Source: Termitomyces sp. T153
Taxonomy: Eukaryota; Basidiomycota; Agaricomycetes; Agaricales; Lyophyllaceae
DNA: 64,000 bases
Direction of reading: 5' to 3'
NCBI GenBank assembly: GCA_018296165.2
Contig: JACKQL020000045.1
Coordinates: 372,001 to 436,000, forward strand
Numbering within the stretch: the first letter of the stretch is position 1; every line of letters starts with the position of its first letter. Below, one piece after another: positions 4,028 through 51,402 of this stretch. The notes under the pieces were generated by a model. The model ran no database searches and was not told where the DNA came from. It saw only the letters and a list, made by a program, of their open reading frames with translations. Made by a program: the position numbers and the translations under genes.

Positions 4028-4106
4028 GGGTCTAGGTATCCTTCCAGTGTTGAGGAAGAATAGTGAGTATCCAGTTGTTTCTGACCTTGCAGAATTTATT
4101 GCAAAC

Positions 4107-5021: not shown

Positions 5022-5201
5022 GGGTGGATCATCTATTTCTGGCTGTAGAGCTGGCCCATCATTAGGTAATGGCTGCTTCTTTTTTTCTGGCAGCTTGATA
5101 ACCAGCTTCTTTCTGCCTGCTTCTTTTTCATGTGAGGTTTTGTGTGAGTGTTTGGGTGTAGCTAGACTACTTTCCTCCCCCTGATTTTGTTTCTTAGGTC
5201 C

Positions 5202-10640: not shown

Positions 10641-10936
10641 GTGGAGATATCAGATGTGTCCAGATTCTGGGGGTGGCCTCAGCTGTAGCCTGCCTGGTCT
10701 ACAGAGGCTGGTAAATAAGAGGGAGCCATGCAGGATATGCTGCTCACCAAGTCTCCAGTCCTAGAGGCCTATCCCATGTATTGCATGGCAGTAGAAGTTG
10801 TATCTTGATTCTGAATTAGTAGACATAGAAATTTTCCAAGACTCATGATTAGGATGAGCATGGTTGATTAGACCAAGAGTAGCCCATGGTATGGGAGTTG
10901 AGTTTTTAGAGTTAAGAACTTGTAGAGGTTAAAATA

Positions 10937-20782: not shown

Positions 20783-21250
20783 TTCATCTGTAAAGGGTGC
20801 CCTCCTCAGCCACACTGCCTGCTACTAACCTTCATTAAATTAACATCACAATGTTGATGTTTGACTCACCCTCAATCCACAGTGTACCAGCTGTAATTGT
20901 TTTCTATTTGACATTTGTGCAATAAATGCTGTCCAATGAAAAACACAACCAATCTCACTGTAAATATAAGATAATCAAAATTGATCTAGTTTCACATCTG
21001 TTTTAAAGGTGTTCAGAATCTACAATTAGATGTGTATTGATTCAGTGTAAATTGCAGTGTAAATGTATCATGTGATGCAAGTAAATCAGCATGTGATAAG
21101 CATGTACAATAAAATATCCAAGGCAAGTTCAATCCATTTATATTGGAGATTGAGGTCTGACTATGTACTCACTCACCTACTGAAATAATGCTCCCTACAA
21201 TGTTTTCTTCATTTGTATCACTATTTATTGTTGTCTTTATCCATTTGTCA
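20783..21250 (-). repeat. Terminal region of element B (GATGAA end)
   Basis: This is similar to 35148-35560 and, as reverse complement, to 50700-50888. Shared text includes GGG[CT]GCCC next to the end, a GCAGG..GTGTGGC-type stretch, TTTATTGCACAAATG and CAGCTGGTACACT. It defines one end of the family. Confidence 0.8.
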
Positions 21251-22430
21251 ACATTCATTATCACAATCAACATCCTCTAATGTTTAGGATTATCCACTTA
21301 TTTTGCCCTTGCACCCACAACACTTCCATGCTCAACAAAGCAAAGAAAGGACTTTCATCAGTTGTGGCAAAGTATATGGATGTGTTGATGAATTTCAATG
21401 TATTATTCCTTTCCTGGTGGTAAGTTATCACTCAAATCACCTTTTTCCAACTAATTCCAATGTACAGAACCCACAATCATTCTCATTCCCCTTCCAAATA
21501 CCACACCTTGCATGGGTATGGCAACAATAACACAATGACTATGACCTTCCACATGTTGAAGAAGCATGATTGCATTTGGAGTTCTGGTTCAGGTGGGACG
21601 AGTTTTTGTTGGATGGCTAGGTCATCACTTGTTGAGCACACAATGTTATCCATTCCTCAAATGAACCAACACAAATTCAATTTTGAAGAAGAAGAATGGG
21701 TATGTATTTCATTTTTTGCACATTGTTATTTCTCAAGAAGCATCAGTGTGGATTTGTCAAGATTTCCAACAATAGTAAATTGCAAGTCTTTATTTACACA
21801 AAGTAATCATTCATTAAATAAATTCTGTACAAATTTTCTTCTCTTTTGATTTTCTCTAGTGGTATCCATTCAAGACAAATGCTTAAATTGATTTCAGTAT
21901 CAAAATTATACAACATGCTGTATGAATCTGATATTTGGTCATGGCATCTAACAAGATATGTTCTGTTCTTTTTTTCAATACAGTGCCTTGATACTGACCA
22001 TGGTTTTCCTCTGTTTGAATATGTACACACCATGGAATGCCACAATCTACCACTTTTAGCTGTAAACAAACCATAGATTATTATGCAGTGTGCCAAGTCC
22101 CTGTGATCAGAGATTGTGCCTGAACACAATGATTGATTTTGGTAATTTTGACATCTGATGTGAAGGGGGGTTTATATCATTAATGTTACATGTCTAGTTG
22201 ACCATAGGATTGCCACTCTTGACAAACTGTTAAACAAAGGTTGACATCAACAACAAATATGTTGCTCTATCAATGCAGAGCTCAGTTTAGGATGCAATCA
22301 CCACATGTAGTGTATAAGACAAGATTTGGTTCACATTATGATATGTACACACAAGTAAGTACCTGTGTTGTGCATTGAATTTATTCTTCTGCCCCTCTTT
22401 ATCCCACAGTGAATTGATTCTACTTGAGGT
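21251..22430 (+). other. Possible captured gene on the plus strand, unrecognised
   Basis: Plus-strand frames at 21303-21530 and 21460-21849 look like consecutive exons of one protein (ISCGKVYGCVDEFQCIIPFLV, then QSFSFPFQIPHLAWVWQQ, then KHDCIWSSGSGGTSFCWMA) with a GT...AG-like gap between them. I recognise no domain. It is the only cargo that may run opposite to the rest of the element. Confidence 0.3.
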
Positions 22431-23256
22431 TCAATCACCAAACCAGGTTAGTTGAGATATGCTGATGATGGGTGATGCTGACTCTATCTCAAGTTCAACT
22501 GTGTAGATAACATCTAAAGCCGTACCCATCCTGCAGGTTTTGTTTGGTGTAGGAGCATGATGGATCATTGCTGCACACATGGTTTGCCCAATCAGTCCAA
22601 TGGTCCAAGGACATTGCAAAGTTGTAACCCCTTCCATAAAACTTCATAATGGAAGTGGCAAATCAACCTGGAGGAGTAGTGGTTGCCGCTCACATATTGA
22701 TTAAGTTCAGGTATCTAAATGTTAGTTTAGGATATGCACAGTATATGTCATTAAACAAAATATAATTTATTATGACCAAGGAATGAAAATCAACCATGGG
22801 CACTAATGGATTCACCATTGTTGATTCAAATATGTTTACTTCCATGTGACCCTGTCTCAGTACTTCAATTCTCCCAACATGTGGCATTCTTGGAAACCTC
22901 AACCTTATTACTAGTGATTGAGTCATTATGGTCAAATTGTGACTCTTCAATAACGTATCCACAACAGTTTCACATTGACCCAATGGACAGAAAATATCCA
23001 GGTTTTGTGGATAGAAGGTCCATGGGTTTAGTACAAGCAGGACACTTGATCCTCCAATGAGGCTACTGCTTGCTTTCAATAAATCCAGAATTTTCACTCC
23101 CTCCAGTCCAAGGCCATTGAACATCCTTGTAACACTGTTGGCAATATAGACCCACACAACAATTTGCAAACTCTTGCATGTTCTTCCAACATTGTATTGG
23201 TCACAAAGATTCAATTGACACAGGATTTGTTCACCAATATCCACTGTCAGCTGCAT
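22431..23256 (-). pseudogene. F-box-like / nucleotidyltransferase-fold protein, paralogue 2
   Basis: The open part (22690-23256, 188 residues) begins with an F-box-like helix (QILCQLNLCDQYNVGRTCKS). It then has SLIGGSSVLLVLNP and NLDIFCPL, the GG/GS...[DN]hDh pattern of minimal nucleotidyltransferases, and HMEVNIFES as a possible third acidic strand. It ends in NDIYCAYPKLTFRYLNLINM, aligning with ...VCAYPHLTFN...GLIN in the copies at 29449 and 49320. A further frame at 22431-22637 may continue it. It is diverged from the other two and in frame between the GS and DhD motifs. Activity and substrate are unknown; the nucleotidyltransferase call is an inference from motif spacing. Confidence 0.5.
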
Positions 23257-23848
23257 TAGTCTACTTTCTAACGTTTATAATAAGCATGCGCCATCTTCTT
23301 AGTGTTCACAACTTACTTTGATTGGTTCTTGAGCAACAAGCTTTTTTATCTTTGTTCTCTTTTTCTACTTTATTTCCAATGCTTTTGCTGTAAATTTTCC
23401 CTATAGGTTGTTATTGAGAGCTATTACTATAGGAAACCATTACAAACCCTTTTTTTTATGTGAGTCATTCTAGGTTGGTGTATGTAACAGAATACTCATT
23501 CAATGGCAAAAATTAGCAACATATATTAGGGGATGTTTTATGCATTTCACCAGTGAACACATTTCAACCTTTTAGGAGAGAATCAAATCATTGATCATGA
23601 CAAAACACAGTGACATCTTGCCAAAGGTACTGTCCCTTTTTTTCATTCTACATGTCTATTTTTGTTAGAACCATAGCAATCCTCATTCACTTTGACTTAG
23701 TGTACAATCACCCCCAGTTTAGCATATGTCTGAAGACTTGATGTGGTGTCTTCTACATGCTGGTGAATTTGAAATCAAGGTTTAAGATATAATACAAGTG
23801 GCCAACTATATGACCACAATTTTATAGGTTTCATATGTAATTTACACT
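23257..23848. other. Spacer inside element B
   Basis: AT-rich, no open frame of note and no recognisable repeat; it separates two cargo genes. Confidence 0.4.
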
Positions 23849-25752
23849 TTATAATTCCATGCTGTTGCTGTCTTCCTTGTCCTTATTCGTTCTATTTTTA
23901 TAGATCTCCCTCATCTTTGATTGAACTTTTTTATTTCCCAACAGAGGATTGTCAAAAGTGTCTTTGCTCACACTAATGGTGAAGCCACTGGGGGTCACCT
24001 CTGCATCTTTCTTAAGATGTTTGAAAATGTTGAAGCCAGCAAAAGCATTGGTAGCCGCTGTGGAAACAGTGAGCTTACTTGCATTATCACAATTCATACC
24101 AGGCAATGTAGGAATTAAATGTTTGATAGGAGGTCCATCAGAGATGCTGATGATGCAGACACTGTGCGCATTGATTTGATAAACCTCCTCTGTTGTTAGC
24201 ACCCGGCATGCAAAACAATGTGAGAGAGCATGCACCTTTCAGATCAAAGATTTATCCTTCATAATAAAACAATGGAGAGAACAATTCATCAACATTAAGG
24301 TTCCTGGCTTCAATGCTTTGTAAAAGTCCAAGGAGCAACAAGATTGTTATTGGGATTGCAAACGTCTAGTTGTACTAATTTGTTTTGTACAAGGTTGAAG
24401 TAAGGTCCCTAGCAGTCTTGATTCAAATGGGGGTCATAAAATGCCCTGCTTTGTGTCAAAGGTTCTTGAAGAGTGTAAAATCCATATCAATGAATTATAA
24501 TAACAGGTTTACCTTCAAAATTCCCCAATTTACCAGAAGACATTGTCACAACTGAATCTCTGTCTGAGTGTAAATCTGAAAGGGAACACTTGGTTAATTT
24601 TTTAGTGGTGGAACATTCCTTATTTGGATTCTAACAATTAACAATATCAGTCTGGACTGAATACCGAGGGAAAACAATGAATGATACTCACACCATATTT
24701 TGGCAGCATATGAACAATGATATGGTCCTTTGTTGTTATTTTGTCCCCATCTGCATTCTGCACCCATTTGCAAATGGCAACATCCTAAAAAAATAAACAA
24801 ATGTGAACATCTGGAAAATGTCTCCATACCACTGCAGATTCTAATTCCTTCTTTTTGTCTGCATCTTGGATTGCATTCAGCATCCCAATTTGATTGTTGA
24901 AAAGTGTGCACAGTCTTCTTGTTCCACCAGTAGGCACCTTGACTGACAAAACATCCTTTGTTTTTGAATCATCTTCCAAAACTTGGACCTGAGCAAATCT
25001 GTTATTTAAAGGCATCACAGTAATTTATCCTGATGGTTCATACCAGTTCTCCAGAATGTCCTGCATAATGGTTCCCTTTTGCTGCAATGATTGTTCCAGC
25101 CTTTGTTCCTGCAATTTCACCACAAAGGTTGGTTCTAAAGTCTTGTCCATTGACATCCTTGTAAGTGTAGTTGCCCGACCATGGCTCAACATTGTGACAA
25201 AAGTCTACAGGGAAGTTTGCTTCTCCCAGGAATGCACTCCCCATATTAATCAGACTCTCCTCCATTGACTTGTACAGGCCATCATTCTGTTCTGCTATCA
25301 ATTTGGAAGAAATAGGCATGAGAGTGTGGATTGAATAAATGGTAATGGCATTTGTTGTTTCTGTAGTGGTAATTTATACATGGTTTGAAACAAAGAATCA
25401 TGGGACATTCACCATCTGCACACTGAAAATTGAAACAATCAGGAGTGAGTCATCCCATTGTAGTCTCATGCTCCATCCTTCTTTTTTTGTGTTTAGATGC
25501 ACTCTGGCCAATGTCAGGGAGGTGAGACAAATTGTCTGAAATTTTATATTTTTGAATACAACGAGGGGAGAGTTTCTCCATAGTGTGAGATACATACAAG
25601 ATGACTTGTTCGACCTCAGTCAAAACTGCTGATGTGTTTGCTGTACCAGCAAACTCATCCATTGATTGGATGCGATATCTATGTGCTTGATCTAATTCAT
25701 TGATATGTTGTGTTGCCTTCAGTATCTCAATGCTATTGCCATGTTTCAACAA
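23849..25752 (-). CDS. Unknown cargo gene downstream of the helicase, probably multi-exon
   Basis: Several long minus frames follow one another: 25450-25752 (HINELDQAHRYRIQSMDEF), 25038-25319 (NVEPWSGNYTYKDVNGQDF then LCGEIAGTKAGTIIAAKGNH), 24785-25018 (NNRFAQVQVLEDDSKTKD then STGG-like VPTGGTRRLCTLFNNQ) and 23849-24235 (TNAFAGFNIFKHLKKDAEV). The parts read like exons of one soluble protein with low-complexity-free sequence, so the gene was under selection not long ago. It starts 40 bases after the helicase frame. I do not recognise the family and assign no function. Exon borders are not resolved. Confidence 0.4.
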
Positions 25753-25791
25753 TGTACTTCATTGCAAGATTTCTAGACATTTTCTGTCACA

Positions 25792-26889
25792 TCACATGTC
25801 TTTGGACAGAGAACAAGTAATCCTCTTTTTGAGGAAAAAACATAGAACAGTGACTCCATTGAGAGAATGCACTCTCGACAGCATAACATATAGTGATTCT
25901 GTACCACTGCAGGATTCCAAATCAACAATGACATGGTCCAGAGTCATCCTCTGCACTCTATGGGCTGTCATTGCAAATGCTGGTACAATGGAAACTTGAG
26001 TGCACAAGATTGTCCACTTTGATTTGTTATATGGATGTTCAAACTTCAATGTTACTGAATTGGCAATTATAGGATAATATCCTGCAGGTAGATTTTGCAT
26101 TGGTGTTTGGTCCACTTCTGGACAATGGATGATGACTGACATCAAATGCTGAATTCCATGAACATCCACTGTATATGTGATTTTCTTGATTGTACCTCTT
26201 GTACCATTTGTGATTCTGCCACCCACATCAAAGTTGTGTGCCACTAGTACTGGCATTCCCAGCACCAGAGGTATTTTGCCCAAACATTGCTTTGTCTTTC
26301 CTGAATGCAAGCATTGTAGCTGTTCTATCAACACTTTGTCTTCAATAACCCCCCCTGAGTTTGTATTTTTTGTACTGATATGATCAATGGCATAATACCA
26401 GTGAAGCTCTTGCCCTGTGTTGAGAGCAAATTGTTTGGCCATGCATTCATTTAATGCATCCTTTGCAGCATTTGTAGCAACTATGATTGGTACAGCCCTC
26501 CAGCCAGGATCTTCATTGACATCCAATAATGACAATACATGCAAATGTAGAAGGTCATTGTCTCTATTGTTACATCTACCCTCCCTCAACCTAGATAACA
26601 ATTCTACAAATCTACCATTATTGTCACCCATCTGCCAATGCTGTTGTGTTAAGAAAACTACTGTCTGCACTGATAACCAGAGCAATTTCCCAAAAATTAT
26701 ATCCTGTCCCACACTTGATTTACTACATTTTTCCCCATCAATTCTCCCATATAACCTTGCATCAGTGGGGGGAGGAAGTTGTGCAAAATCACCTGCAAAA
26801 ATGACATTCATACCTCTAAATGCAGATGGATTGCCTTTTGCCACTGACAGCGCATGACTGATTTGTGTTAGACACCAACAGCTTAGCAT
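25792..26889 (-). pseudogene. PIF1-type Helitron helicase, C-terminal part
   Basis: A 365-residue frame starts inside motif II (MLSCWCLTQISHAL, usually preceded by DEISM) and continues FRGMNVIFAGDFAQLPPPTD (motif III, Q-L-P-P), then the later motifs LGKIPLVLGMPVLVAHNFDV (motif IV/V area, GMPV) and VSIVPAFAMTAHRVQRMTLD with YVMLSRVHSLNGV near the end (motif VI, the usual Y-V-A-L-S-R form). Length is far below a full Helitron Rep-helicase. The ATP-binding GKS motif I and the whole Rep domain are absent. The remaining part is open and well conserved. The fragment cannot act as a helicase by itself. Confidence 0.88.
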
Positions 26890-28740
26890 GCAGCATTATC
26901 TGGTTTGTCATAACAAGATTGTAGACTTTCTTGATTTACATCTGGTTTGACAAGTTCAATGTGGTAAGGTAGGAAATCCCAACTCTCAATGTCCTCCAAT
27001 GCTGGTTCATTTATAACTATATGATGATACAAAGGGTTATGTATCTTTAACCACTTCAAGGCAGCACAGATGTGATCTGCACAAACAATTAGAGGTCTTG
27101 CATGTTCTTTCAACCATTTTGTAGATGGTTGCTCATTTCTGACAAACAACACACACACACACAGGGGTTACAATCTCTTCAACTGAAGGAGGTAATATAC
27201 TTGCAATGCTTCCAGGATCCTGAGGAAATATTATAGTATGTCCATGCATTTTTTTCTGTACACCAGGTAAGTTTTTGCCTGAACCTTTGTTTTGAATCTA
27301 CACTATATATTGACTGGGATGATGCAATGAAATGACAGATTCCTCTACTGTGTTCAGATCCTGCAGGACTTGTGGCACCTTGCCCAAATACATTTTATTG
27401 GCCAAAGCAAATTTTGGTAGGTGATTTTTCCTTATTCAGATTCAAACACTCATTACATAGTTGAAGAAATGGAGTCCCATCCAGACTTTGTATTATGCCA
27501 TTGGGATCAATAAGCAAATTCTGCAGAGGTCCAGTGTGTACTGGCAGTAAATGTTCAAACTCTTGTCTTTGCATGTCATCTACACTACCATCAACTGATT
27601 TGTTGTACTGCAATCCAGATAAAGGCATATTCTGGATATCCTCAGTAGAATCAAGTCCGATAGTAAATGGAGTAGTACATCCTGGGTAATGGAGAAGGGC
27701 AAGATGTAACGAGTGACATGAAATACATGCAGTGTCAAACACAGGCATATTTCTGGAACAACAAGCACAGAGTAATACATGCAAACAATCTGATGAGGTT
27801 GCTTCTCAAAACATTTCAGTGAGCTTTGACTTGAGATTATGCAAAGCACATGATGGCTAAGATGAATCTAAATGTTTTTTGGAAAATTTCATCGATGGCA
27901 AGTTGTCAATTTTGCCTTTCCCTTTAACCAAGTGATGAGCATATTTCTTCAATAAAGTCTGCATTTGACAAAGCAATGCACCAGGCTTACAGGGAATACT
28001 ATACATACTCAGGAGAAGCTGAGCAGCTTTTGAACTAAGCTTGGGTATTATGTGAGAGAATAAGTGAGATTAAATTTCATCATTGGAGGTGTTGACACTG
28101 CTACAATTTTCTGTCTGATTCTGATGAACAGCTTGCATCCCATCTGAAGATAACACTTCATGTGAGAATGCACAACATGCAACGTTCCAACCACCTGTAG
28201 AACAAAGACCATTAAATGTATGTGCCATAATACCTGCTGCAATCTGCTCATCCGACCCTACACATGAAATTCCATGGGATGCTGCAAGGTCTAACAGTTC
28301 ATGCTGCTTTAATCTTGTGGAAGCCAAAAAGATACTAGAGGGAATGATGCAGATAGCTCCCATATCCCATTTATGCAACAATTCATGCAGACATTTTAAA
28401 TGTTGTAACCTGTTGAACCCAACTTTATTGAGACCCAAACAGGAACAGTACAATTTCAGATCATCTGAGGATACTGCAGCATAGGACACAATACCATCCA
28501 AGAGGTGATACCAAATCAGCAAGGAATCAGCATCTTCAGCCAGATATCCACATGTATCTGTAGCATGATTAGTGCAGAGTCCATTTAACAAATGATGGAC
28601 CAACAAAAGGATACTTTTGTTATCTGATTCACAACAAGTCAGACATGGTTTGTGAGTATGCAATTCATAAGAGACTTGTCCAGAAAAAAAGTTGCATGAA
28701 AACTGTTTGTCTGAAAAAGCAACAAATTCAACAGATCGTT
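26883..28740 (-). pseudogene. DUF6570-like N-terminal part of the Helitron protein
   Basis: The frame 26883-27158 reads RNEQPSTKWLKEHARPLIV then ICAALKWLKIHNPLYHHIVI and DFLPYHIELV, the pattern of the DUF6570 domain of fungal Helitron proteins. Upstream frames (27395-27784, 28070-28663) hold Cys-rich sequence with HSLHLALLHYPG and GISCVGSDEQIAAGIMAHTFNG, usual in the N-terminal part of these proteins. Its 3' end runs straight into the helicase motif II at about 26885, so the Rep domain and helicase motif I have been deleted. Confidence 0.7.
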
Positions 28741-28980
28741 AATCCTGGGTTTGTTAAATGAAGACAAAGATGATCTATCAGAGTAGATATGCACAGATTC
28801 AGATCTCAAAACATTGGGTCTACCTATTGGTGCAGGCAGAACAACACCTTTGAAGATATGTAAAATATATCAAAAAGACAAAATATAAAATAAGCAGTTA
28901 CCTTGAAATCTAGATTGAGTTGATGTTAAGCAAAAATCTGCTGCTGCTGTAGGAGACAATCTGAAAAGCAAACAATGCTC

Positions 28981-29232
28981 TCAGAAAAGCATGAACCAAT
29001 CAAGTCCCAAAACAATGCCAGACACATCTGCAATACAAAAAGTCAACACAGTAGAAAATTCAATCCCTTCAGCAGTTGAGAACACAGGTAGACAAAGTGA
29101 TTGAGAGGACAATAACACAGAAGTCTCAAAGAGGCGTCGAGGCAACTGGCTAATGGCCACGTTGGGATCAAACAAGGCATCAAAAGAAAGATCACCAAGT
29201 AATACCACTATAGAGGATGGAATAGTCATCAA
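28981..29232 (-). CDS. Small retropepsin-like cargo protein (D-P-N in place of D-T-G), copy in B
   Basis: An 83-residue frame with LLGDLSFDALFDPNVAISQLP near the start and FCIADVSGIVLGLDWFMLF at the end. The order (G-x-x-h-x-A-h-h-D-x-x at the N side, h-h-L-G-h-D-W-h at the C side) is that of retroviral-type aspartic proteases, but the catalytic Thr-Gly reads Pro-Asn. A homologue with the same D-P-N is at 50310-50675. In both elements it lies directly downstream of the nucleotidyltransferase-like gene. It may be a protease-fold protein without catalysis, or the fold call may be wrong. Confidence 0.5.
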   Translation of the reverse strand: MMTIPSSIVVLLGDLSFDALFDPNVAISQLPRRLFETSVLLSSQSLCLPVFSTAEGIEFSTVLTFCIADVSGIVLGLDWFMLF

Positions 29233-29448
29233 ATATGAGGAAAGGAAACAAAAGTCTCACATGCTTAAAAAGCTGATACTCTGTATTTTATAATGTCTCA
29301 TGAATCATGAGTGAATATCAAAATACTATATCCAATGATGGTAATATTCTAAATAAGGTTAATTTTGGAAATAGTATATATCTTTAAGGGAGATGAATAA
29401 TGGAAGCCAAATGAAACATACAAATTGTAGAAGGATATCAGAAAGGTT

Positions 29449-30290
29449 TTAACCAAAAGCAAGCTTCCAATGTGTATTTCTATTGACACCCATTTCAGAG
29501 TGAGGACCATGAATAGGAATCACATCTGCAATGCAGAAGGTGAAGATGTGGGAATCATTAAACATATGGAAAGTAAGCAGACAGTTCCCATCAATGCCAC
29601 ACTCATGATGACTAAAGATATCCCAATGCTTGATATTCAAAGCAAGGTCAAACCTCCGAGCTTGATATTTGGCAATGGCTTCAACAAGTGTCAGTGTAAT
29701 TGAACCATCAGTGAAATGCAGACAGTTGATGAGACCACAACAATTGAAAGTCAAATGAGGATAAGCACAGACAATGTCAGTGTTGGACATGAAATTCATA
29801 ACTGGGGTTGAATGGAACCAAGTAATGGGATGAAGTGTGTTATTGGTGGATGAAAGGATGACATCAATAGTGTGACCCTGGAGAGCAAAGTGAACTACAT
29901 CTTCAATGCATCCATCATGATTGTATCTGTCTGGCAAGGACCCCTCCTCCAATTGATATCCATAGACAAGCGTGAGTTCATCCATGATTATATTGCACTT
30001 GCAGGTGGGCACATAGATGTCCATATCAGTGAATTCAATGTCACCAGAGGGAAACAAAAGAGAGAGTATAAGGAGCCTGACACAACACTCTGTGTTGCAT
30101 TTAACAAGCATAAGAAACTATTGGGATGAAGACCAAAAAGTGATAAATGCTCATGAATGTTGTTGGCTACAAAGTTTTGGACATCAACTTGAAGGGATGT
30201 GCCTGCAAGAATTGCAAGATTGTGCAAATCAAGTTTCTTCAATATGTTAATCAGTTTGTTGGTGGACATGCCCTTAGGAAGATGGGGCAC
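29449..30290 (-). pseudogene. F-box-like / nucleotidyltransferase-fold protein, copy in B
   Basis: The N-terminal frame (29988-30290) carries LINILKKLDLHNLAILAGTS, an F-box-like helix, and SVVSGS. The frame then shifts by -1 into 29449-30111, which continues LLFPSGDIEFTDMDIYVP, then GHTIDVILSSTNN and VCAYPHLTFNCCGLIN. The triplet GS / DMDI / TIDV is the acidic pattern of minimal nucleotidyltransferases. It is highly similar (about 220 residues) to 49320-50127, including the -1 shift at the same place. Substrate unknown. Confidence 0.6.
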
Positions 30291-31292
30291 TGTAGATTAA
30301 AATTGATCAATGTGAGTGAAAAAATTTGTAAGAAAAAGCAAACGTGTAATTCCAAACATATTGATCATGATTTGAGTGAATAAGAGTGGGCCTATGAATT
30401 AAAGGAGTTTAATAGCAACATGAATTTAAGTTATATTTTACTTTTGCATGTAAGACTAGCTTCACCAAGATGATACAAACTCAGTGGAACCAAGAGGGGT
30501 GAAAAGGGAGTAATATTAACACAATAATATATATGTGAACTGAAACAATGAGAATGAGAAACAAAAAAAGGAGTTATTATCCACAACCATAAAGGGGTTA
30601 TTGTTGACAATAAGATGACATCACAAATCAGACAAAAAAGTGATAACAATGAGATGTTGAAAGAAAGACAGACTACAGATTTGTATTGCAATGTTCATAT
30701 ACAAAAGCAGGATGAAAATGCTGCTGGAGGATAATGAGCAACTAGCAAGAAAAAGAAACACACAGCATACCACATCCTCAGATGCTTTCAGTGCATCCCA
30801 TCCAGCCAAACCAAAATATAAAGGTAACATCTGCCACACATTTTTGTGCTGTTCTGCATGTGTCACCACGACCTTGGCAGCACACCATATACAAAAGAGC
30901 AAAGACCAGACAGGGTTCCATATGGTAAGTGCCTCAAGAGTGGTATAGCATGAAAGAGTAGCTTTGCCAAAGAATGAGCGACTGATTTCATCTTGGGCAG
31001 CAAGACAAGAGGTAGGGTGTAAACAACAACTGCCAGGAGTCCAATTAAACAACCAAGATCATGTATGCTCTGTCTGGGCTGACAATAACCACTGCCTACT
31101 GACACACACTCTGATGATGTCAGCTGGGTTCATACACACAACTGTACCATCTACCCGGGTGATGCCAGACTGAATTTTATGCTTGAATTGAATCAAAAGA
31201 AGGTTAAAGAAAAAAAACTGAATGTTATGAACCAACAGATAACATTTACAGATATGGTACAACAGTGCAGGTACACAAGATTGAAGACCAAA

Positions 31293-31964
31293 TGTCAGGA
31301 CCACAGTCCTGGAGGGGGACTCTTACAGGAGCCAAAACCACCTTGGGGAGGTGATGCCAACAGCAAGTATGTAAATAGGGAAAGAAACTAAGAAACTAAG
31401 AAATGAGAGCGAGTAATGAATGAAGAGAAGATCAGATAACAACAGAACACAAACAAGATATCAGGTAATGTCAAGGCTGGGGTGTAGCTACAGACTAAGG
31501 GACCTTATATAGCTGTAGGACACTGCCAAAAGGAGAAGATGGAAGTGATCTAAGTCATAGCAGGAAGTGATCTAAGTCATGAGAAAGCAATCTGGAACAA
31601 GGAAAGCAATCCTGGAAGTGATCTTGGACAGGTGGAAGTGATCTGGAACAGGTGGAAGTGAGCTGGAACCTGTGGAAGTGATCTGGAACCTGTGGAAGTG
31701 ATCTGGAACCTGTGAAAGTGATCTGGAACCTGTGGAAGTGATCTGGAACCTGTGGAAGTGATCTGGAACCTGTGGAAGTGATCTGTGCCTGTGGGAATGA
31801 TCTGGAACAGGAAAAGCGGTCCTAGAGGTGGCTAAAACCTGGATGTGGCTGAAACAGGACTGTGGCTAAGATCTGGGGGTGTGGCTGAGATCTAGAGAGG
31901 GACTGTGTAGAATCTGAGGTTGGATAATAGTGAAGGGAAAGGAGGAATGGAATGGGTCATGACA
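31293..31964 (-). repeat. TRIM LTR 1
   Basis: 672 bases. It contains CCTTATATAGCTG and an array of the 20-base unit GGAAGTGATCTGGAACCTGT (about eight copies, 31630-31790). Confidence 0.9.
31630..31790 (+). repeat. 20-bp minisatellite inside the TRIM LTR
   Basis: Units GGAAGTGATCTGGAACCTGT repeat head to tail; equivalent arrays lie at about 32755-32910 and 33900-34050 in the other LTRs. Confidence 0.9.
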
Positions 31965-32438
31965 GTACTCCCCCTTCAAGCATCGAGCCCTCGAGATGTG
32001 TGTGTAGTGATTCTGAGATTCTGAGGAGTGTGGAAGAGTGTTGGGAAGGGAAGAAGCATGGGGAAAGACCAGGAGGGTGTCCAAAGTGAGTGCCAATCTG
32101 TACTTGCAATAACCACTGTGAAGAAGGTGCAAGAGTCACCTCCACAGATACTGGAGCCATCCTATTACTTCCCAACTAAGGCTGAAGCAAAGGGTGGACA
32201 GTGCTGGAGCATGTAAATGCATCCAAAATCAACCCCATGGAATACCAGTGCCACCCCAGTAACTCTGAGCCTGGATAGAGGTGTGGGGGGAATAGAAATG
32301 GGGGAGCCAACTCTATGGGATTACTGGTGCCATCCTCAAACTCCTCAATGAAGGCTGAAGTGGAGGAGGGATAGAAATAGAGTGGGTAAGATATACAAGC
32401 TGCCATCACAACCTGGGGGGTGGTGCAGCCTTGACATT

Positions 32439-33088
32439 TGTCAGGACCACAGTCCTGGAGGGGGACTCTTACAGGAGCCAAAACCACCTTGGGGAGGTGA
32501 TGCCAACAGCAAGTATGTAAATAGGGAAAGAAACTAAGAAACTAAGAAATGAGAGCGAGTAATGAATGAAGAGAAGATCAGATAACAACAGAACACAAAC
32601 AAGATATCAGGTAATGTCAAGGCTGGGGTGTAGCTACAGACTAAGGGACCTTATATAGCTGTAGGACACTGCCAAAAGGAGAAGATGGAAGTGATCTAAG
32701 TCATGAGAAAGCAATCTGGAACAAGGAAAGCAATCCTGGAAGTGATCTTGGACAGGTGGAAGTGATCTGGAACAGGTGGAAGTGATCTGGAACCTGTGGA
32801 AGTGATCTGGAACCTGTGGAAGTGATCTGGAACCTGTGGAAGTGATCTGGAACCTGTGAAAGTGATCTGGAACCTGTGGAAGTGATCTGGAACCTGTGGA
32901 AGTGATCTGTGCCTGTGGGAATGATCTGGAACAGGAAAAGCGGTCCTAGAGGTGGCTAAAACCTGGATGTGGCTGAAACAGGACTGTGGCTAAGATCTGG
33001 GGGTGTGGCTGAGATCTAGAGAGGGACTGTGTAGAATCTGAGGTTGGATAATAGTGAAGGGAAGGGAGGAATGGAATGGGTCATGACA
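32439..33088 (-). repeat. TRIM LTR 2
   Basis: 650 bases, nearly identical to LTR 1 and 3 but lacking about 22 bases (one AGTGATCTAAGTCAT unit) near 32700. It carries the same 20-base tandem array. Confidence 0.9.
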
Positions 33089-33562
33089 GTACTCCCCCTT
33101 CAAGCATCGAGCCCTCGAGATGTGTGTGTAGTGATTCTGAGATTCTGAGGAGTGTGGAAGAGTGTTGGGAAGGGAAGAAGCATGGGGAAAGACCAGGAGG
33201 GTGTCCAAAGTGAGTGCCAATCTGTACTTGCAATAACCACTGTGAAGAAGGTGCAAGAGTCACCTCCACAGATACTGGAGCCATCCTATTACTTCCCAAC
33301 TAAGGCTGAAGCAAAGGGTGGACAGTGCTGGAGCATGTAAATGCATCCAAAATCAACCCCATGGAATACCAGTGCCACCCCAGTAACTCTGAGCCTGGAT
33401 AGAGGTGTGGGGGGAATAGAAATGGGGGAGCCAACTCTATGGGATTACTGGTGCCATCCTCAAACTCCTCAATGAAGGCTGAAGTGGAGGAGGGATAGAA
33501 ATAGAGTGGGTAAGATATACAAGCTGCCATCACAACCTGGGGGGTGGTGGAGCCTTGACATT

Positions 33563-34234
33563 TGTCAGGACCACAGTCCTGGAGGGGGACTCTTACAGGA
33601 GCCAAAACCACCTTGGGGAGGTGATGCCAACAGCAAGTATGTAAATAGGGAAAGAAACTAAGAAACTAAGAAATGAGAGCGAGTAATGAATGAAGAGAAG
33701 ATCAGATAACAACAGAACACAAACAAGATATCAGGTAATGTCAAGGCTGGGGTGTAGCTACAGACTAAGGGACCTTATATAGCTGTAGGACACTGCCAAA
33801 AGGAGAAGATGGAAGTGATCTAAGTCATAGCAGGAAGTGATCTAAGTCATGAGAAAGCAATCTGGAACAAGGAAAGCAATCCTGGAAGTGATCTTGGACA
33901 GGTGGAAGTGATCTGGAACAGGTGGAAGTGAGCTGGAACCTGTGGAAGTGATCTGGAACCTGTGGAAGTGATCTGGAACCTGTGAAAGTGATCTGGAACC
34001 TGTGGAAGTGATCTGGAACCTGTGGAAGTGATCTGGAACCTGTGGAAGTGATCTGTGCCTGTGGGAATGATCTGGAACAGGAAAAGCGGTCCTAGAGGTG
34101 GCTAAAACCTGGATGTGGCTGAAACAGGACTGTGGCTAAGATCTGGGGGTGTGGCTGAGATCTAGAGAGGGACTGTGTAGAATCTGAGGTTGGATAATAG
34201 TGAAGGGAAGGGAGGAATGGAATGGGTCATGACA
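33563..34234 (-). repeat. TRIM LTR 3
   Basis: 672 bases, nearly identical to LTR 1, ends at TGACA before the target duplication CCAAA. Confidence 0.9.
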
Positions 34235-35124
34235 CCAAACAAATGACATGATGCAAAAAGATCAATTTCAAAACCAGCATCCACTGCCAGAGTGGTATCA
34301 ATTTCATTGAAAGATAAATCAAAACCATGTAGAAAGGAAGGGAAACAATGATGAATGTGACCAGCAATGGTAGTGTAGACCCCAGATATTGAATATTTGT
34401 CCCCCATGTGTAACAATGAATGGATGATATCTGCATGCAACAGCTGGCAGCTCAAGGAAGATCCAGAGTAGTCAATGTATGTACAACACTAGACACAAGA
34501 GAACATACAAGTTGAGATAATAAATAGCCCTGATAAGAGTATAAAAATCAACAGAATCCTCACTCATTATATGGATGCTATGAGTCCATTGATTTCCATG
34601 CAAGGGACGTGAATGCCACATGTCCTTAAAGACTGGAGAAAGCCTGGTAAAAACAGAAGCATGAATATGGAATATTGAATCTCCAACCAACAAAACTAGA
34701 TTCCCATCAGAAAAAGAAACAGAATGGATATTGGATAACATTGGTTCTGAGGCCAAAGGGTAATAGCATGCAGGTAGAGGAAAGATGGACATTGTTGCGG
34801 TAGAAAATTGAGTCAAAGGAGATGTGCATGGGAAAAGGGGCATATGAAACAATGGATAAAATCACATGCGATGCACAGACAAGACAAAAGACATTACATT
34901 TGAGGAGATCAAAACAGGGAATTAGATAGATAGACAAGTGCAATTATTGAACAGTGCATTGCAGGTCAAGAAACAGCACAGACTGAAAGGCATATAGAAA
35001 CAAAAACCAACAAGGAAAACAATGAGCACATGAGAAGAAATGGGCCAGGCAGATCAACAGTCTGGAAAGCATGACTTTTTATCTGAATAAACCTTTGAGA
35101 TTTTTTTTGATAGAGCCACAAGAA

Positions 35125-35147
35125 ACCCACTACATAGTAGTGGGAAT
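35125..35147. other. Hairpin end of element B
   Basis: CCCACTACATAGTAGTGGG forms an 8-bp stem with a 3-base loop. Equivalent hairpins lie at about 36126-36144 (one mismatch) and 48722-48741. Confidence 0.85.
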
Positions 35148-36146
35148 TTCATCCATGAAGGGCGCCCTGTTTGGCCACAACACCTGCTACTATCTGGACC
35201 TCCATTCCATTGTGACAATTCTGTTGCAGCCCTATACATAACATCTTCAAGTTGCTCTGACATTACTCACCATTTCTTATTCCTGTTCAAAAATTGTCAT
35301 TTAATAGTTATCATTTAAAAATCACATTGTAAACATAAGCTGTTTAATTCATGTTTGCATTTGTTTCTCTTTCTGTTCAGGGGCAGTTGGCTTTAAACAG
35401 GTCTAGACTACAGTTCTATGAGCATGTGACAGGCATGTAGAGTAAATTATTCAAAGCAAGTTCAATCCTTCTACATTGGAGCTTGCACCCTGCCTATGTC
35501 CACAATCACACATCAACATAATGTTTTCTATAACATATACTGCACTTGTTTACTCCAGTTTAAACTTGTCATTCCATTCAGCCAAGCCAAAATAGAAAGG
35601 TAACATCTGCCACAGATTTTCGCAGAGAGCCTGGTAAAAACAGAAGCATGAATACGGAATATTGAATTGCCGACCAACAAGACTAAATTCCCATCAGAAA
35701 AAAAAAACAGAATGGACCTCAGATAACGTTGGTTCTGAGGACAAAGGGTAATAGCATGCAGGTAGAGGAAAGATGGACATTGTTGCAGTAGAATATCGAG
35801 TCAAAGGACATGTGCATGGGCAAAGGGGCATATGAAACGACGGATAAAATCACATCTGATACACAGAGAAGACAAAAGACATACCATTTGAGGAGATCAA
35901 GACAGGGCAATAGCAAGGGAAACAAATCCAAATTTTCTATTGAACAGTGCATTGCAGGTCAAGAAACAGCACGGACTAATGGGCATCATAGAAACGACAA
36001 AAAGAAAACCGATGGAAAACGATGAGCACACGGGAAGAAATGGGCCGGGAGGATCAACGGTCCGGAAAGCGTGACTTTTTATCTGAATCAACCTTTGAGA
36101 TTTTTTTCGATAGAGCTACAAGAAACCCACTACATAGTAGCGGGAA
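35148..36146 (-). mobile_element. Helitron-like element, copy A (1.0 kb deletion derivative)
   Basis: It abuts copy B: B's hairpin end (GTAGTGGGAAT) is followed at once by A's end TTCATCCATGAAGGGCGCCC. Its right end has the same hairpin (CCCACTACATAGTAGCGGG, near 36124-36144). Inside are fragments of the BTB gene: a C-terminal piece near 35570-35620 joined to an N-terminal piece at 35630-35970, both matching copy B. No helicase. A non-autonomous derivative with both ends kept. Confidence 0.78.
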
Positions 36147-38693: not shown

Positions 38694-40223
38694 TCATATC
38701 CAGTGGTAATCGACCCACCTCATGATAATGCAGCGTCCGCCCACGGAAATGTGATTCAATTTGCGACAGTGATCACGAATTGGCTCAAGTGGCCATGAAT
38801 CGTTATTCGTATAAATAACCACAGTAGAAAGGCTGTCTGTGATTTTAGACCATCGCTCCTCTACCATTGATACGAATGTGTCCCAGGCTTCCTTGGACCG
38901 AATGAACACGTGGATTTCCTCCACAATGGGGAGCAAAAATCCGCTCGTGATATGTCGCAATAAACTTGTAGACAATTCTGAAGGAGAGATATCAAGAACA
39001 CGTATGGATGGAGAAATGGTGTAGATCAGACTGTCGATGAGGTGAGGTGGTATTTCAAACCAGTGAGTCAGGCATTCAAGCTTGCATTGCCACAGACGGA
39101 TGAGCTTGCCCAGGTCATACTGTGCAAGGATCCTGGTGGTAATAGCGGCATGAAGATAATGTACTCCAAGGGATGTCAATGATGGAAGAGCAAGAGGTTG
39201 GAGAAGTGGAAATAATGCTTCCTCGGCGTCTACGTGGATTTCAAACGTGAAAAGTGATTGAAGCGTGATTACATGCATTCTTTTGTCGTGTGTTTTCGCA
39301 ACTCGTTGCCTGTCGAGTGAAAGTCGGCGAATGTGCATTGTACAGGTCTGAAGATTTTTACACGCTGAGAGGAGCCAATGAGTTTCTGTAATGGTGAGAA
39401 ATGTTTTCCCTCGTATGTCGAGCCTCGTTAGCTGGCTGAATGGAATGGAAGTGGCATGTAAATCAGCCATCGGCTGAGCTCTTCTGAACTCGTCATAGTC
39501 CAGTGATTGGACATTTTCTAGTACGGAGCTAATGCTTAACTCGTGAAGCTTAGGAGCCTTCGTGAAGACGGAGAAACCTGAAATCAAGGAACGTCGAGGC
39601 TGCGTTTGATATACTGGTAAAACTCGGTGTCCAAGTCCAGGAGGACCTTGAGGTACTTGGAATGACATGATAAGCTCCACAGACTCTAATTCTGGGAAGG
39701 AATACGGTGCTGAGGAGAGGAAACGATCACTGAACATGAATGGACAAGCAATTGTGACGCGCGTGATACGAGCGGCACAGGCGGCAAGGATGTCTAAGAG
39801 GGGATCTTGGGTCTTGTAGGAACTGGTCCAGTTCAGCAAGCGGAAGTCCAGAATATGTGTTCCTCTCGAGAGAACATCTTTAATGGAATTCTGGATAAGC
39901 AATTTGTATGACTGATTGTTGCCGAGACTGCGATAGAATATTCGGATTGATTTCCAATTGCCCTGAGTGCTGTAAATAATTTGCCTCCATCTTCCACAGG
40001 TCCGCGCTAAACACCATGGGTACTCGTGAGCGGGATTACGTGGAGGTAGATCGACAACAGAATCTAGCGAAAACACACTTGAGAAAATCAGGATCAGAAT
40101 CTCGGGCGGGAGCTTCTTCTGCGGGGAAAGTACTGCATTGATTTCCGTCAGACGATTGATGAGTGCTCGGCGGTGGTCCTTAGAATCATTATTGAGCGCT
40201 GGAAGTTTGTCAAGATCGGACAT
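38694..40223 (-). CDS. F-box protein with leucine-rich C-terminus
   Basis: A 509-residue frame. Residues about 12-55 hold a heptad-like helix and RLTEINAVLSPQKKLPPEIL followed by ILIFSSVFSLD, the typical start of basidiomycete F-box proteins (L-P-P-E-I-L core). A CRWRQIIYSTQGNWKSI block follows and the rest looks like irregular LRR sequence with many ITRL/LTRLDI patterns. Such proteins usually serve as substrate receptors of SCF ubiquitin ligases; no substrate is implied. A minus frame just upstream (40148-40402, MPHPDEILTSAASV...) may be a real 5' part, but I find no intron that joins the frames, so the start at 40223 is provisional. Confidence 0.8.
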   Translation of the reverse strand: MSDLDKLPALNNDSKDHRRALINRLTEINAVLSPQKKLPPEILILIFSSVFSLDSVVDLPPRNPAHEYPWCLARTCGRWRQIIYSTQGNWKSIRIFYRSLGNNQSYKLLIQNSIKDVLSRGTHILDFRLLNWTSSYKTQDPLLDILAACAARITRVTIACPFMFSDRFLSSAPYSFPELESVELIMSFQVPQGPPGLGHRVLPVYQTQPRRSLISGFSVFTKAPKLHELSISSVLENVQSLDYDEFRRAQPMADLHATSIPFSQLTRLDIRGKTFLTITETHWLLSACKNLQTCTMHIRRLSLDRQRVAKTHDKRMHVITLQSLFTFEIHVDAEEALFPLLQPLALPSLTSLGVHYLHAAITTRILAQYDLGKLIRLWQCKLECLTHWFEIPPHLIDSLIYTISPSIRVLDISPSELSTSLLRHITSGFLLPIVEEIHVFIRSKEAWDTFVSMVEERWSKITDSLSTVVIYTNNDSWPLEPIRDHCRKLNHISVGGRCIIMRWVDYHWI

Positions 40224-45014: not shown

Positions 45015-45016
45015 TA

Positions 45017-48536: not shown

Positions 48537-49319
48537 ATGATTGTGCCAGTTTAGACATTCTTATAGTTGTTTCATTTTTTTTGTAGGGGACTGTAATACT
48601 TGGCCATTGTGAGGCTACATTCTTAATTTACATTGATCTCACCAATGACATAAAGTTGCATATCAATATTTCTCTTGTACAAAAAGCATCATATGACATC
48701 CAACAAGGAGGTTGATAAATTCCCGCTACTTTAGTAGTGGGTTCTTGGAGATTCTATCAAAAAAAAATTGAAAAGGTGGATTCAGATAAATCTTCACGTT
48801 TTTTGGTCTGGACAGCCCATTCTAAATTATTCGTTTTTTTTTCTATTGCTACCATCCCCCATGGCACTCTAGACACATGACCTTCCCTACTCTTTCTATT
48901 CCAGCATTCATTTTTATTTTGCTTATGCATGTGTTCCTCTTTTATTGGGCTCCTCAATTGTTGGCTAGATTTTCATAACATCTCCTTTTTTAAAAATATT
49001 ATTCTTTCATTCATCTTTCTGAGACTAATGGTCACTAAGGTGTTTCAGTGTTCCTTTACTTTGCCTTTCTACAGCATTGTTCTAGCTTTTTACAGTGATG
49101 TCTCTTTTCCCAGTTCCTGCATGCCATTTTCCTTTGTCCTCTGACCCAATACTATCCAATGTCTCTTCTGTTCAATTCTTCAATGGCAATTTAATCTTGT
49201 TGGTTGGCAATGCTACTTTTTGTATCCACGCCTTGGTGTGATCCACACTACAACATTAACATCTTCATAAGAAAGCATGTATCTGGGCAATATTTATATT
49301 CATCAGATTGTTGATTGTT

Positions 49320-50127
49320 ATGAAATGAACCTTTTTAAGAAACTCAATTTGCATGATCTTGCAATCCTCACCAGCACATCCCTCCAGGCTGATGTCCAGC
49401 ACTATGTAACCAATAGAATCCATGAGACTTTGATGGCTTTTGGTCTTCAACCTAACAGCTTTCTTTGTCTGTTGAATATGACGCAAAGTGTTTTATCAGG
49501 TTCATTTGTGCTCACCCTCCTTTTTCCTGTGGGGACATTGTGCTGACTGATCTGGATATCTATGTGCCCACTTGCAGTCGCAAACTAATCACAGACAAGC
49601 TTACTCATGTGTATGAGTATCAGCTTGAGGATGGTTTTTCACCAGACACATACAATTGCTATGGTTGCATCGAGGATGTAACCCATTTCTCACTACAGGG
49701 GCACACTATTGACATTGTTCTTTCCTCTACCAACAATGCCCTCCATCCAATCACTCAGTTTCATTCGACTCCAGTTATGAACTATATGTCGGACACCACC
49801 ATAGTGTGTGCCTATCCCGACTTAACATTCAACTATCATGGTCTCATCAACCATTCCCGCCTTGTTCATGGTTCTGACAATCCAAATATTGTCAAAGCTC
49901 TTTCCAAGTATTGATCTCGGGGATTCGATCTTGCTGTGGACTTGGAGCAGTGGGACATTTTCTCTGCGCACAAATGTGGCATTGACAGGAACTGTCCACT
50001 CACTCTTCGCAGTTTTAATGATCCACATATATTCACTTTTTGCATTGCAGACATGTTTGGAGGAAGAGAACGTTGCACTCAAGGGAGAAACAATAGAAGT
50101 ACAGTCTGGAAGATTGCCTCCATTTAA
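49320..50127 (+). pseudogene. F-box-like / nucleotidyltransferase-fold protein, copy in C
   Basis: The N-terminal frame (49277-49546) has NLFKKLNLHDLAILTSTSLQ and SVLSGSFVLTLLFP. The frame then moves by -1 to 49465-49914, continuing GDIVLTDLDIYVPTCSRKL, GHTIDIVLSSTNN and CAYPDLTFNYHGLIN. It stops at ALSKY and, after that stop codon, continues to 50127 (GFDLAVDLEQWDIFSAHKCG). GS / DLDI / TIDI are the expected nucleotidyltransferase acidic positions. The copy in B shares the -1 shift, so the common ancestor probably had it. Function unknown. Confidence 0.6.
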
Positions 50128-50309
50128 ATATAACTTTTCACATTATTTTGGTTCATCTATTTCGTGAAATCATGGTATTCCATATGGATAGTTCAAATTT
50201 TGAATATTTTTGAGACTATTTGTCTGATTTTTGTTCTTTTGTATTGGGTTCCTGTTTCATAATTCTCGAACTTTTTGAATGTGAGATTTAGCAAATCCTG
50301 TGATTTTGT

Positions 50310-50675
50310 TTGATCTTACAAATGGGCGACTACTGCACTCCAAACCTTCGTTTTTTGTTTTCATCAACAATGACTCTCCTACCTTCCATGGTGATATCAT
50401 TAGGCGGTCTGCCATTTGATGCTTCCTTCGATCCTAACGTACCCGTCAGCCAGTTACCTCGACACCTTTTTGAGTCCTCTATGTCAGCAGCATCTCAGAC
50501 TCTCTGCTTGCCTGTCTCTCTACAGACCAAAGGGCTAGGTTTCACTACAGTGATGTCGTTTTGCATTGCAGATGTGCCTTGCATTGTTCTGGGTCTTGAT
50601 TGGTTTGCGCTGTTTCGAGAACAGCACCTGCAATACATTCTAAACCCATTTAAAACGGACACGGACCTAGATTGA
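50310..50675 (+). CDS. Small retropepsin-like cargo protein (D-P-N), copy in C
   Basis: The open frame is 121 residues; the part homologous to 28981-29232 begins near MTLLPSMVISLGGLPFDASF and has FDPNVPVSQLPRHLFE, LCLPVSLQTKGLGF and FCIADVPCIVLGLDWFALF. Order of elements resembles a retropepsin monomer: DTG replaced by D-P-N, closing ILG-D replaced by VLGLDW. The frame is intact. Not recognised as any named family; the fold is inferred from pattern only. Confidence 0.5.
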   Translation: MILQMGDYCTPNLRFLFSSTMTLLPSMVISLGGLPFDASFDPNVPVSQLPRHLFESSMSAASQTLCLPVSLQTKGLGFTTVMSFCIADVPCIVLGLDWFALFREQHLQYILNPFKTDTDLD

Positions 50676-50888
50676 TTTCGATTATCTTATGTTTACAGTG
50701 GGATTGGTTGTGTTTTTCATTGAACAGCGTTTATTGCACAAATGTAAAATAGAAAACGATTACAGCTGGTACACTATGGATGGAGGGCGAGTCAAACATC
50801 AAGGCGGCATTTAAATACATTGTGATGTTAATTTAATGACGTTTAGTCGCGGGCGGTGCGGCCGAAGAGGGCGCCCTTCACGGATGAA

Positions 50889-51402
50889 ATCTATTATGCA
50901 CATATATAATGTGTCATTACCAACACCCTAGATCTCAGACATGCCGTGCGGACCAGCGGCCCATACTAGCTTGTATTCTATAAGATCACAAAAAAAGACT
51001 GGTGTGTTCCACCAAGCTGTGCAGCTTAGTAGAATGTCTCCCAACATAAAGTAAACCTCAGGCGGGACAATAATTGTTTGCGTTTCACACTCCTTTTTAC
51101 CAGTTTTAGAATTTTTTTTGCGTTCTTGGGCGCGGAGGTAATGCTGATACTATCATCCTGTATCTTAACTCCACTTGCGGTTTCGCCCCTGAAAGAAGTT
51201 GTAGCTCAATGGGGATAGGTGAGGGAGCACAGATACCCTTTCCTTCTCCATGGCGTAATTACAGTATCTTGAGGTGTCATTCAAAACAGAGATGTCGACA
51301 CGAAAGTGGTGAAAACCGTCCATTCAGGCTGTGATCACCCGAGGTGACGAGATGAAGTATTGATTCACTTGAATAGTCAGTAGTTTGACACTTTGTAACA
51401 TT
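50889..51402. other. Host DNA right of element C
   Basis: Composition returns to host level. No gene or repeat recognised; it is the 3' side of the DUF1479 gene. Confidence 0.4.

What the first reader, a model, noticed from the sequence alone, without database searches (positions are those of the whole stretch)
20783..36146. Helitron-like cargo element family with a hairpin end and non-canonical termini
Seen: three elements (A 35148-36146, B 20783-35147, C 48720-50888) share both termini: a CCC[GA]CTAC..GTAGTGGG hairpin at one end and GGGCGCCCTTCA.GGATGAA at the other. None shows a target duplication. B carries a PIF1 helicase and a DUF6570-like domain, so the lineage is Helitron, but the ends are not TC...CTRR. 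Inference: this is a distinct subgroup, closer to Helentron-type elements, with a stable set of host-like genes.
Basis: partly seen in the sequence, partly recalled or inferred. Interest (0 to 1): 0.88.

Follow-up and report, generated by a model that had tools for sequence, protein, structure and literature searches.

The report
Mushroom Helitron family with unusual ends
These are copies of a rolling-circle jumping gene in what appears to be a mushroom-type fungus; its ends differ from textbook Helitrons and it seems to carry a small BTB-like gene of its own, which makes it a new variant of a known kind of mobile element.

Summary
A, B and C share both termini. The hairpin-end pattern matches 41 places and the other end 42 places in the 72.4 Mb host assembly, against 0 for reversed patterns. 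Empty sites fix the boundaries for two insertions and show no target duplication.

Coding copies run from the hairpin to the GATGAAA end, so the hairpin is 5'. Elements read R|TTCCC[GA]CTAC-loop-GTAGTGGG ... AGTAG[CT]GGG-(36 nt)-GATGAAA|T. This is the asymmetric inverted-repeat layout of Helitron2/DINE elements, but the target is A|T (or G|T), not T|T. No endonuclease domain was found, so it is not a Helentron proper.

B is not autonomous: it keeps DUF6570 and half of Pif1, no Rep. A sister copy (C100) encodes DUF6570-Rep-Pif1 behind a near-identical hairpin, with the catalytic residues.

A, B and C all keep BTB-like sequence about 300 bp inside the hairpin. It recurs across subfamilies and shows purifying selection (dN/dS median 0.33), so it looks like a family gene rather than random cargo. 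Elements also cluster head-to-tail.

New variant of a known kind.

The parts
20783..35146 (-). Element B, 14,364 bp, non-autonomous; transcription orientation is the minus strand (5' hairpin at 35146, 3' end at 20783)
35147..36146 (-). Element A, 1,000 bp, internal-deletion derivative, head-to-tail directly against B
   Evidence: three near-full-length relatives about 93% identical (L003, L004, L007)
48720..50889 (+). Element C, 2,170 bp, internal-deletion derivative in the opposite orientation
35126..35146 (-). 5' terminal hairpin of B (subTIR), TTCCCACTAC..GTAGTGGG
36126..36146 (-). 5' terminal hairpin of A
48720..48741 (+). 5' terminal hairpin of C; DNA fold -5.5 kcal/mol on this strand, -3.3 on the other
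20783..20826 (-). 3' end of B: 3' subTIR at 20818-20826 and terminal block, last base changed
35147..35191 (-). 3' end of A: 3' subTIR at 35183-35191 and GGGCGCCCTTCATGGATGAAA
50845..50889 (+). 3' end of C: 3' subTIR at 50845-50853 (one mismatch) and GGGCGCCCTTCACGGATGAAA
34523..34861 (-). BTB-like ORF of B (Pfam BTB 21.4 bits, cut-off 20.5, for the ORF 34475-34861)
35592..35849 (-). BTB-like remnant of A, same place relative to the hairpin
49047..49253 (+). BTB-like remnant of C, same place relative to the hairpin
28930..30296 (-). Second accessory ORF of B, in pieces (tentatively F-box-like, only through its relation to the 22693-23274 ORF)
   Evidence: no Pfam family for its pieces or for its L069 relative
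49328..50624 (+). Same accessory ORF in C, in pieces
26997..27429 (-). DUF6570 domain remains of B, two frames
25795..26895 (-). Pif1 helicase, C-terminal part only (profile positions 134-222; below the Pfam cut-off)
22693..23274 (-). ORF with a weak F-box hit (E 0.0099, below cut-off), distantly related to the 28930-30296 ORF

Best explanation
A, B and C are non-autonomous copies of one Helitron-like rolling-circle family, in what is probably an agaricomycete, with Helitron2-type asymmetric terminal inverted repeats. The unit is 5'-TTCCC[GA]CTAC-loop-GTAGTGGG ... AGTAG[CT]GGG-36 nt-GATGAAA-3', inserted between R and T of the host. Shown: ends, boundaries and target at two insertions, lack of duplication, orientation of coding copies, and a sister copy with an HUH-type Rep and Pif1 behind a near-identical hairpin. 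Inferred: Rep supplied in trans nicks at R|TTCCC, the helicase peels the coding strand, the 5' hairpin and the 3' subTIR mark the two ends, and the joined single strand enters a new A|T or G|T site. A resident element's own 5' edge (R|T) is also a good landing site, which would give head-to-tail pairs such as B-A. The BTB-like gene next to the 5' hairpin is an inherited accessory gene of the family; A and C arose by internal deletion that spared part of it.
For: Ends: 41 and 42 genome matches, controls 0. Flanks in TTCATC-to-hairpin orientation: A at the host position before the element in 29 of 30 distinct starts; T (26) or C (6) after 32 distinct hairpin ends. Empty sites: 8 of 8 for C, 3 of 3 for the C1 copy. 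3' subTIR: found in 29 of 30 ends (25 exact), at exactly 36 nt in 27 of 30; exact motif in 0.37% of shuffled ends. Hairpin: -5.5 kcal/mol on the coding strand, z -4.3 (C) and -6.1 (A). Orientation: hairpin upstream of and in sense with helicase in L069 and L070 and with DUF6570/Rep in L071; C100 hairpin at 139812 followed by DUF6570-Rep-Pif1. Rep residues: H209, H211 and Y382 identical in 11 of 11 aligned proteins, Y386 in 10 of 11 (the query plus 10 chosen of the 120 listed). BTB-like ORF: A, B and C, 16 of 30 hairpin loci, hairpin found at 5 of 7 BTB places fetched by similarity alone.
Against: No intact autonomous copy with both ends was found. C100 is broken in places, its 3' end was not seen up to C100:156000, and it belongs to a sister subfamily with other sequence next to the hairpin. 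Of 281 Rep candidates only the best 150 were scored and none of these lies inside a pair of these ends by coordinates; the abundant Rep families of this genome could be the helper. The 3' palindromes do not fold better than shuffles. B has a changed last base and its empty sites differ by a TA unit. One of four joined-flank searches found no empty site (C2). One of 30 ends has no 3' subTIR and two have it at another distance.
Confidence: 0.87

Rival explanations
1. Canonical Helitrons (Helitron1) with degenerate ends, read in the first reader's direction, the hairpin being the usual 3' hairpin.
For: A|T target like canonical Helitrons; a palindrome at one end.
Against: The hairpin lies 2 nt from the terminus, not about 11 nt; no CTRR; genes run away from the hairpin in L069, L070, L071 and C100; a subTIR lies exactly 36 nt from the other end in 27 of 30 copies.
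Confidence: 0.05
2. Helentrons proper (Rep-helicase-endonuclease, T|T target).
For: Same subTIR layout as HINE/DINE elements in the passages read of PMC4067079.
Against: No endonuclease or OTU family at E <= 0.01 in the three coding-strand frames of B or of L072; host dinucleotide A|T or G|T, not T|T.
Confidence: 0.04
3. The BTB-like and second accessory ORFs are host gene pieces captured separately by individual copies.
For: Helitrons capture genes; BTB and F-box families are large in mushroom fungi (own knowledge); Pfam scores are weak; 14 of 30 hairpin loci gave no BTB-like hit with the two queries used.
Against: Same ORF at the same place and strand in A, B, C and across subfamilies; dN/dS median 0.33 in frame against 0.50-1.16 in the five other frames.
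Confidence: 0.12
4. Gap-zero pairs such as B-A come from rolling-circle read-through that made a concatemer, not from insertion beside a resident element.
For: B and A abut with no base between; two further zero-gap junctions, C80 and C7.
Against: The other junctions seen have about 5 to 35 bases between, which a concatemer does not explain; A and B are only 87% alike over the shared 524 bp.
Confidence: 0.3

Closest known systems
FoHeli1/FoHeli2, non-canonical Helitrons of Fusarium oxysporum (PMC5148889; passages and section 16 read)
   Same: Asymmetric terminal inverted repeat, 5' hairpin, 3' repeat tens of bases inside the 3' end, no CTRR, start TC or TTC with the same one-base ambiguity; nested copies and one copy inserted 2 bp from another described
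   Different: Ends ATTTT there against GATGAAA here; target given as TNAT then T or A there against R|T here; Ascomycota against a probable basidiomycete; a BTB gene was not seen in the passages read
HINE/DINE-1 and Helentrons (PMC4067079; passages read)
   Same: Palindromic subTIR 2-4 nt from the 5' end and 38-60 bp from the 3' end, palindrome near the 3' end, no target duplication, tandem repeats inside some copies
   Different: They insert in TT and have variable terminal T; Helentrons encode an endonuclease, not found here
HELPO1/HELPO2, Pleurotus Helitrons (PMC4289320; passages read)
   Same: Basidiomycete host, AT insertion, Rep and Pif1, cargo genes of unknown origin
   Different: Ends T[C/G] and CTRR or CTTG with a subterminal 3' hairpin; BTB and F-box have 0 occurrences in that text
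Helitron2 carrying TET/JBP in Agaricus bisporus (PMC12730594; passages read)
   Same: Helitron2 in Agaricomycetes with an accessory gene
   Different: Accessory gene is a TET/JBP dioxygenase; termini not given in the passages read

Membership tests
Helitron superfamily | HUH Rep with two tyrosines together with Pif1 helicase | tested here: met
   Sister copy C100/L072: PF14214 E 5.8e-30, DUF6570 2.8e-26, PIF1 3.8e-6; H-C-H 11/11, Y382 11/11, Y386 10/11. Not present as a whole in B
Helitron superfamily | No target-site duplication | tested here: met
   11 of 11 fetched empty sites of two insertions
Helitron1 (canonical) | 5' TC and 3' CTRR | tested here: not met
   5' TTCCC, 3' GATGAAA
Helitron1 (canonical) | Hairpin 10-12 nt from the 3' end | tested here: not met
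   Hairpin is 2 nt from the 5' end
Helitron1 (canonical) | Insertion between A and T | tested here: met
   A|T in both clean empty-site sets; A 26 and G 6 before the 5' end at 32 ends
Helitron2 (ATIR group) | Asymmetric terminal inverted repeat | tested here: met
   29 of 30 3' ends, 27 at exactly 36 nt
Helitron2 (ATIR group) | Hairpin at both termini | tested here: inconclusive
   5' hairpin z -4.3/-6.1; 3' end z near 0
Helitron2 (ATIR group) | Insertion between TTTT and T or C (as given for Helitron2 in PMC5148889, which counts FoHeli as Helitron2-like although its target differs) | tested here: not met
   R|T target
Helitron2 (ATIR group) | Rep-helicase groups with Helitron2 in a tree | not tested
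Helentron | Endonuclease domain in the Rep-helicase protein | tested here: not met
   No such family in three coding-strand frames of B and of L072; C100 itself is broken, so a lost domain is not excluded
Helentron | Insertion in a TT dinucleotide | tested here: not met

The most novel reading that the evidence does not exclude
The family encodes its own substrate adaptors of ubiquitin ligases, a BTB-like protein at the 5' end and F-box-like proteins further in, which it keeps under selection to remove host silencing or repair proteins during transposition; it joins Helitron2-type ends to a Helitron1-type A|T target.
Probability: 0.2. Interest if true: 0.68.

Novelty: new variant of a known kind. 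Interest (0 to 1): 0.45.

Why it matters
Fungal Helitrons without CTRR ends are missed by tools that look for the canonical hairpin and CTRR. This gives defined end motifs, a proven target and a layout that can be scanned for across Agaricomycetes. The pairing of Helitron2-type ends with an A|T target bears on which part of the machine chooses the target. A selected BTB-like gene carried next to the 5' end raises a testable question about how these elements deal with the host.

Tried and rejected
Looking for the helper by coordinates: 150 scored Rep places (of 281 candidates) gave none inside a pair of these ends; the lineage's Rep was found through the DUF6570 and helicase of B. Empty site for the C2 copy: none found. 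Homologues of two accessory ORFs among 5.8 billion proteins: none at E <= 0.001. BTB ORF in the PDB: the single sequence gave nothing useful; an 8-sequence profile puts BTB proteins first but only at E 0.13. Rep in the PDB: nothing. Rfam on the window: no match at gathering scores. Structure of B's BTB-like ORF without an alignment: mean pLDDT 45.4, too poor to use, no fold search made. MITE or TIR transposon: rejected, since there is no duplication and the inverted repeats are asymmetric. Ends as internal repeats: rejected by the empty sites. Rep phylogeny against labelled Helitron1/Helitron2: not done, no labelled references at hand.
Full report
WHAT WAS CHECKED. The window is contig C45:372001-436000 of a 72,369,511-base assembly in 307 contigs. 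A, B and C exist and share both termini. A hairpin-end pattern (CCCRCTAC, 3-5 bases, GTAGYGGGAA) matches 41 places in the assembly and its reversed control 0. The other end (TTCATCYRTGAAGGGYGCCC, up to one mismatch) matches 42 places, control 0. By coordinates 11 same-strand start-hairpin pairs lie within 30 kb of each other. They are not all single elements: one joins B's start to A's hairpin, and those on C80, C51 and C46 hold further ends in between. A, B, C and copies on C1, C2, C11, C24, C80 and C100 have both ends.

BOUNDARIES AND TARGET. In the orientation TTCATC to hairpin, 29 of 30 distinct starts are preceded by AT. The base after GGGAA is T in 26 and C in 6 of 32 distinct hairpin ends (loci were held for part of the 41 and 42 matches, duplicates removed). 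C lies in a dispersed repeat. Of 21 hits to its joined flanks 17 span the junction; 8 of these were fetched and all 8 lack the element plus one T. The A-type copy at C1 gave 3 spanning hits of 7, all fetched, same result. The extra T belongs to the element or is a one-base repeat. In the copy at C2 and the A-type copy at C46 the base after GGGAA is C while the start is still preceded by AT, so I read the T as element. In coding orientation the element is R|TTCCC...GATGAAA|T, without target duplication. For the A+B pair, 5 fetched repeat copies place the insertion at A|T of a repeat end, with one extra TA unit in the window. No empty site was found for C2.

ORIENTATION. B's closest helicase relatives in the genome are C120 (84%) and C26 (69%). 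In both, and in C3, a hairpin lies upstream of and in sense with the coding region. At C100 a hairpin at 139812 (one base off the pattern) is followed by a BTB-like ORF, DUF6570, Helitron_like_N and PIF1 on one strand.

TERMINAL ARCHITECTURE. The 5' hairpin begins 2 nt from the terminus. As single-stranded DNA it folds at -5.5 kcal/mol on the coding strand (z -4.3 for C, -6.1 for A) and at -3.3 on the other strand for C. Its arm recurs as AGTAG[CT][GA]GG at exactly 36 nt from the 3' end in 27 of 30 copies, in 29 of 30 at any distance with up to two mismatches, and exactly in 25; one copy has none. The exact motif occurs in 0.37% of shuffled ends. The 3' block GGGCGCCC..GATGAAA is palindromic to the eye, but its fold is no better than shuffles. 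This matches the passages read on HINE/DINE elements: palindromic subTIR 2-4 nt from the 5' end and 38-60 bp from the 3' end, and a palindrome near the 3' end (PMC4067079). It also resembles the FoHeli description (PMC5148889).

CODING CAPACITY. B holds DUF6570 in two frames and only the second half of PIF1; no Rep, endonuclease or OTU family appears in its three coding-strand frames at E <= 0.01. The lineage's best Rep is L072 (C100), PF14214 E 4.8e-29 for the ORF alone. In an alignment with 10 chosen homologues the H-C-H motif and the first tyrosine are identical in 11 of 11 and the second tyrosine in 10 of 11. The named homologues among the 120 listed of 296 found are Agaricomycetes such as Mycena, Suillus, Lyophyllum and Lentinula (class from own knowledge), which is the basis for calling the host a probable agaricomycete. 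The genome holds at least 150 Rep matches; none of the 150 lies inside a pair of these ends.

ACCESSORY GENES. BTB-like sequence lies about 290-330 bp from the 5' end in A, B and C, in sense. It is found by two queries inside 16 of 30 hairpin loci (three of them the window's own), and not in 14. Of 7 further BTB hits fetched by similarity alone, 5 have a hairpin-like end, in 4 of them 217-266 bp before the ORF start, the fifth without a readable ORF; 2 have none. The Pfam score passes the cut-off only for B (21.4 against 20.5). Five of the six ORFs and two give BTB as their best hit over the same profile stretch; one of the six (L095) gives no BTB hit. Among six ORFs, dN/dS is 0.33 in the median (13 pairs of 15 with an estimate) against 0.78, 1.08, 0.87, 0.50 and 1.16 in the other five frames, where stop codons were skipped. 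CpG decay could bias these values; the frame comparison controls for much of it. A second accessory ORF is shared by B, C and L069, and a third ORF near B's 3' end is distantly related to it; only the third shows a weak F-box hit (E 0.0099). Neither the BTB-like nor the second ORF found a homologue among 5.8 billion proteins.

TANDEM CLUSTERING. In fetched loci, allowing 3 substitutions per end, 9 same-orientation junctions lie within 40 bp (hairpin end followed by the next start): window B-A, C2, C80, C11, C29, two on C51, C58 and C100. C7 adds a zero-gap one and C46 one with 31 bases between. At C100:139076 an element sits directly in the remains of a hairpin end. The second C51 and the C58 junctions look like one event duplicated. 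No opposite-orientation pair was seen within 40 bp; four places have one at 84-270 bp. Chance would give about 0.0005 same-orientation pairs (an estimate from copy numbers). I infer a preference for landing at or near a resident 5' edge; concatemer formation remains possible for the zero-gap cases.

VERDICT. Works like a Helitron, as ends, target and a Rep-Pif1 sister copy indicate. By structure it belongs with the ATIR (Helitron2) group, though its target is not the one given for Helitron2 in PMC5148889 and no tree was made. It fails the tested marks of Helitron1 (ends, hairpin place) and of Helentrons (endonuclease, TT). The A|T target and the BTB-like gene set it apart from the families described in what I read. 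Paper searches: whose listings are capped (for example 25 of 1,064); I saw no paper there that describes this family, but only four papers were opened, and only in part.

Noticed in passing
window 31293-34234: Inside B a unit of about 1.13 kb is repeated nearly three times (91-100% identical), each with a 20-bp minisatellite of about 10 copies. The block is absent at the same point of the C120 relative L069.
   Followed up: partly
A copies: window 35147-36146, L003, L004, L007: 62 of 102 two-state variable sites among four A copies are CpG transitions, as expected from decay of methylated cytosines.
   Followed up: partly
window 45015-46554: Inverted repeats of 180 bp (94%) flank a 1.2 kb stretch with an ORF that looks like a Tc1/mariner-type transposase to the eye; Pfam gave no hit for it. 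A DDE_3 ORF with similar residues lies at 14138-14485 (E 4.5e-12).
   Followed up: partly
window 3200-10700, minus strand: Decayed retroelement pieces: reverse transcriptase at 6104-6469 (E 2.4e-14), Tf2-1-like SH3 at 3641-4120 (E 1.7e-8).
   Followed up: no
window 38694-40223, minus strand: 509-aa ORF just beyond A with an F-box-like hit slightly under the cut-off (E 9.1e-5), a possible host gene.
   Followed up: no
window 51642-52082, minus strand: Open stretch with a strong Gig2-like (PF07350) hit, E 9.8e-30, near element C.
   Followed up: no
L087 (C7:225500-234500) and L075 (C32:524500-527300): Short elements of the same family, about 1.3 kb, that keep a DUF6570 fragment and gave no BTB-like hit.
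   Followed up: partly
genome, PF14214 hits: At least 150 Rep matches, apparently from other and much more abundant Helitron families, some with open frames of 650-1,020 aa; their ends were not studied.
   Followed up: no
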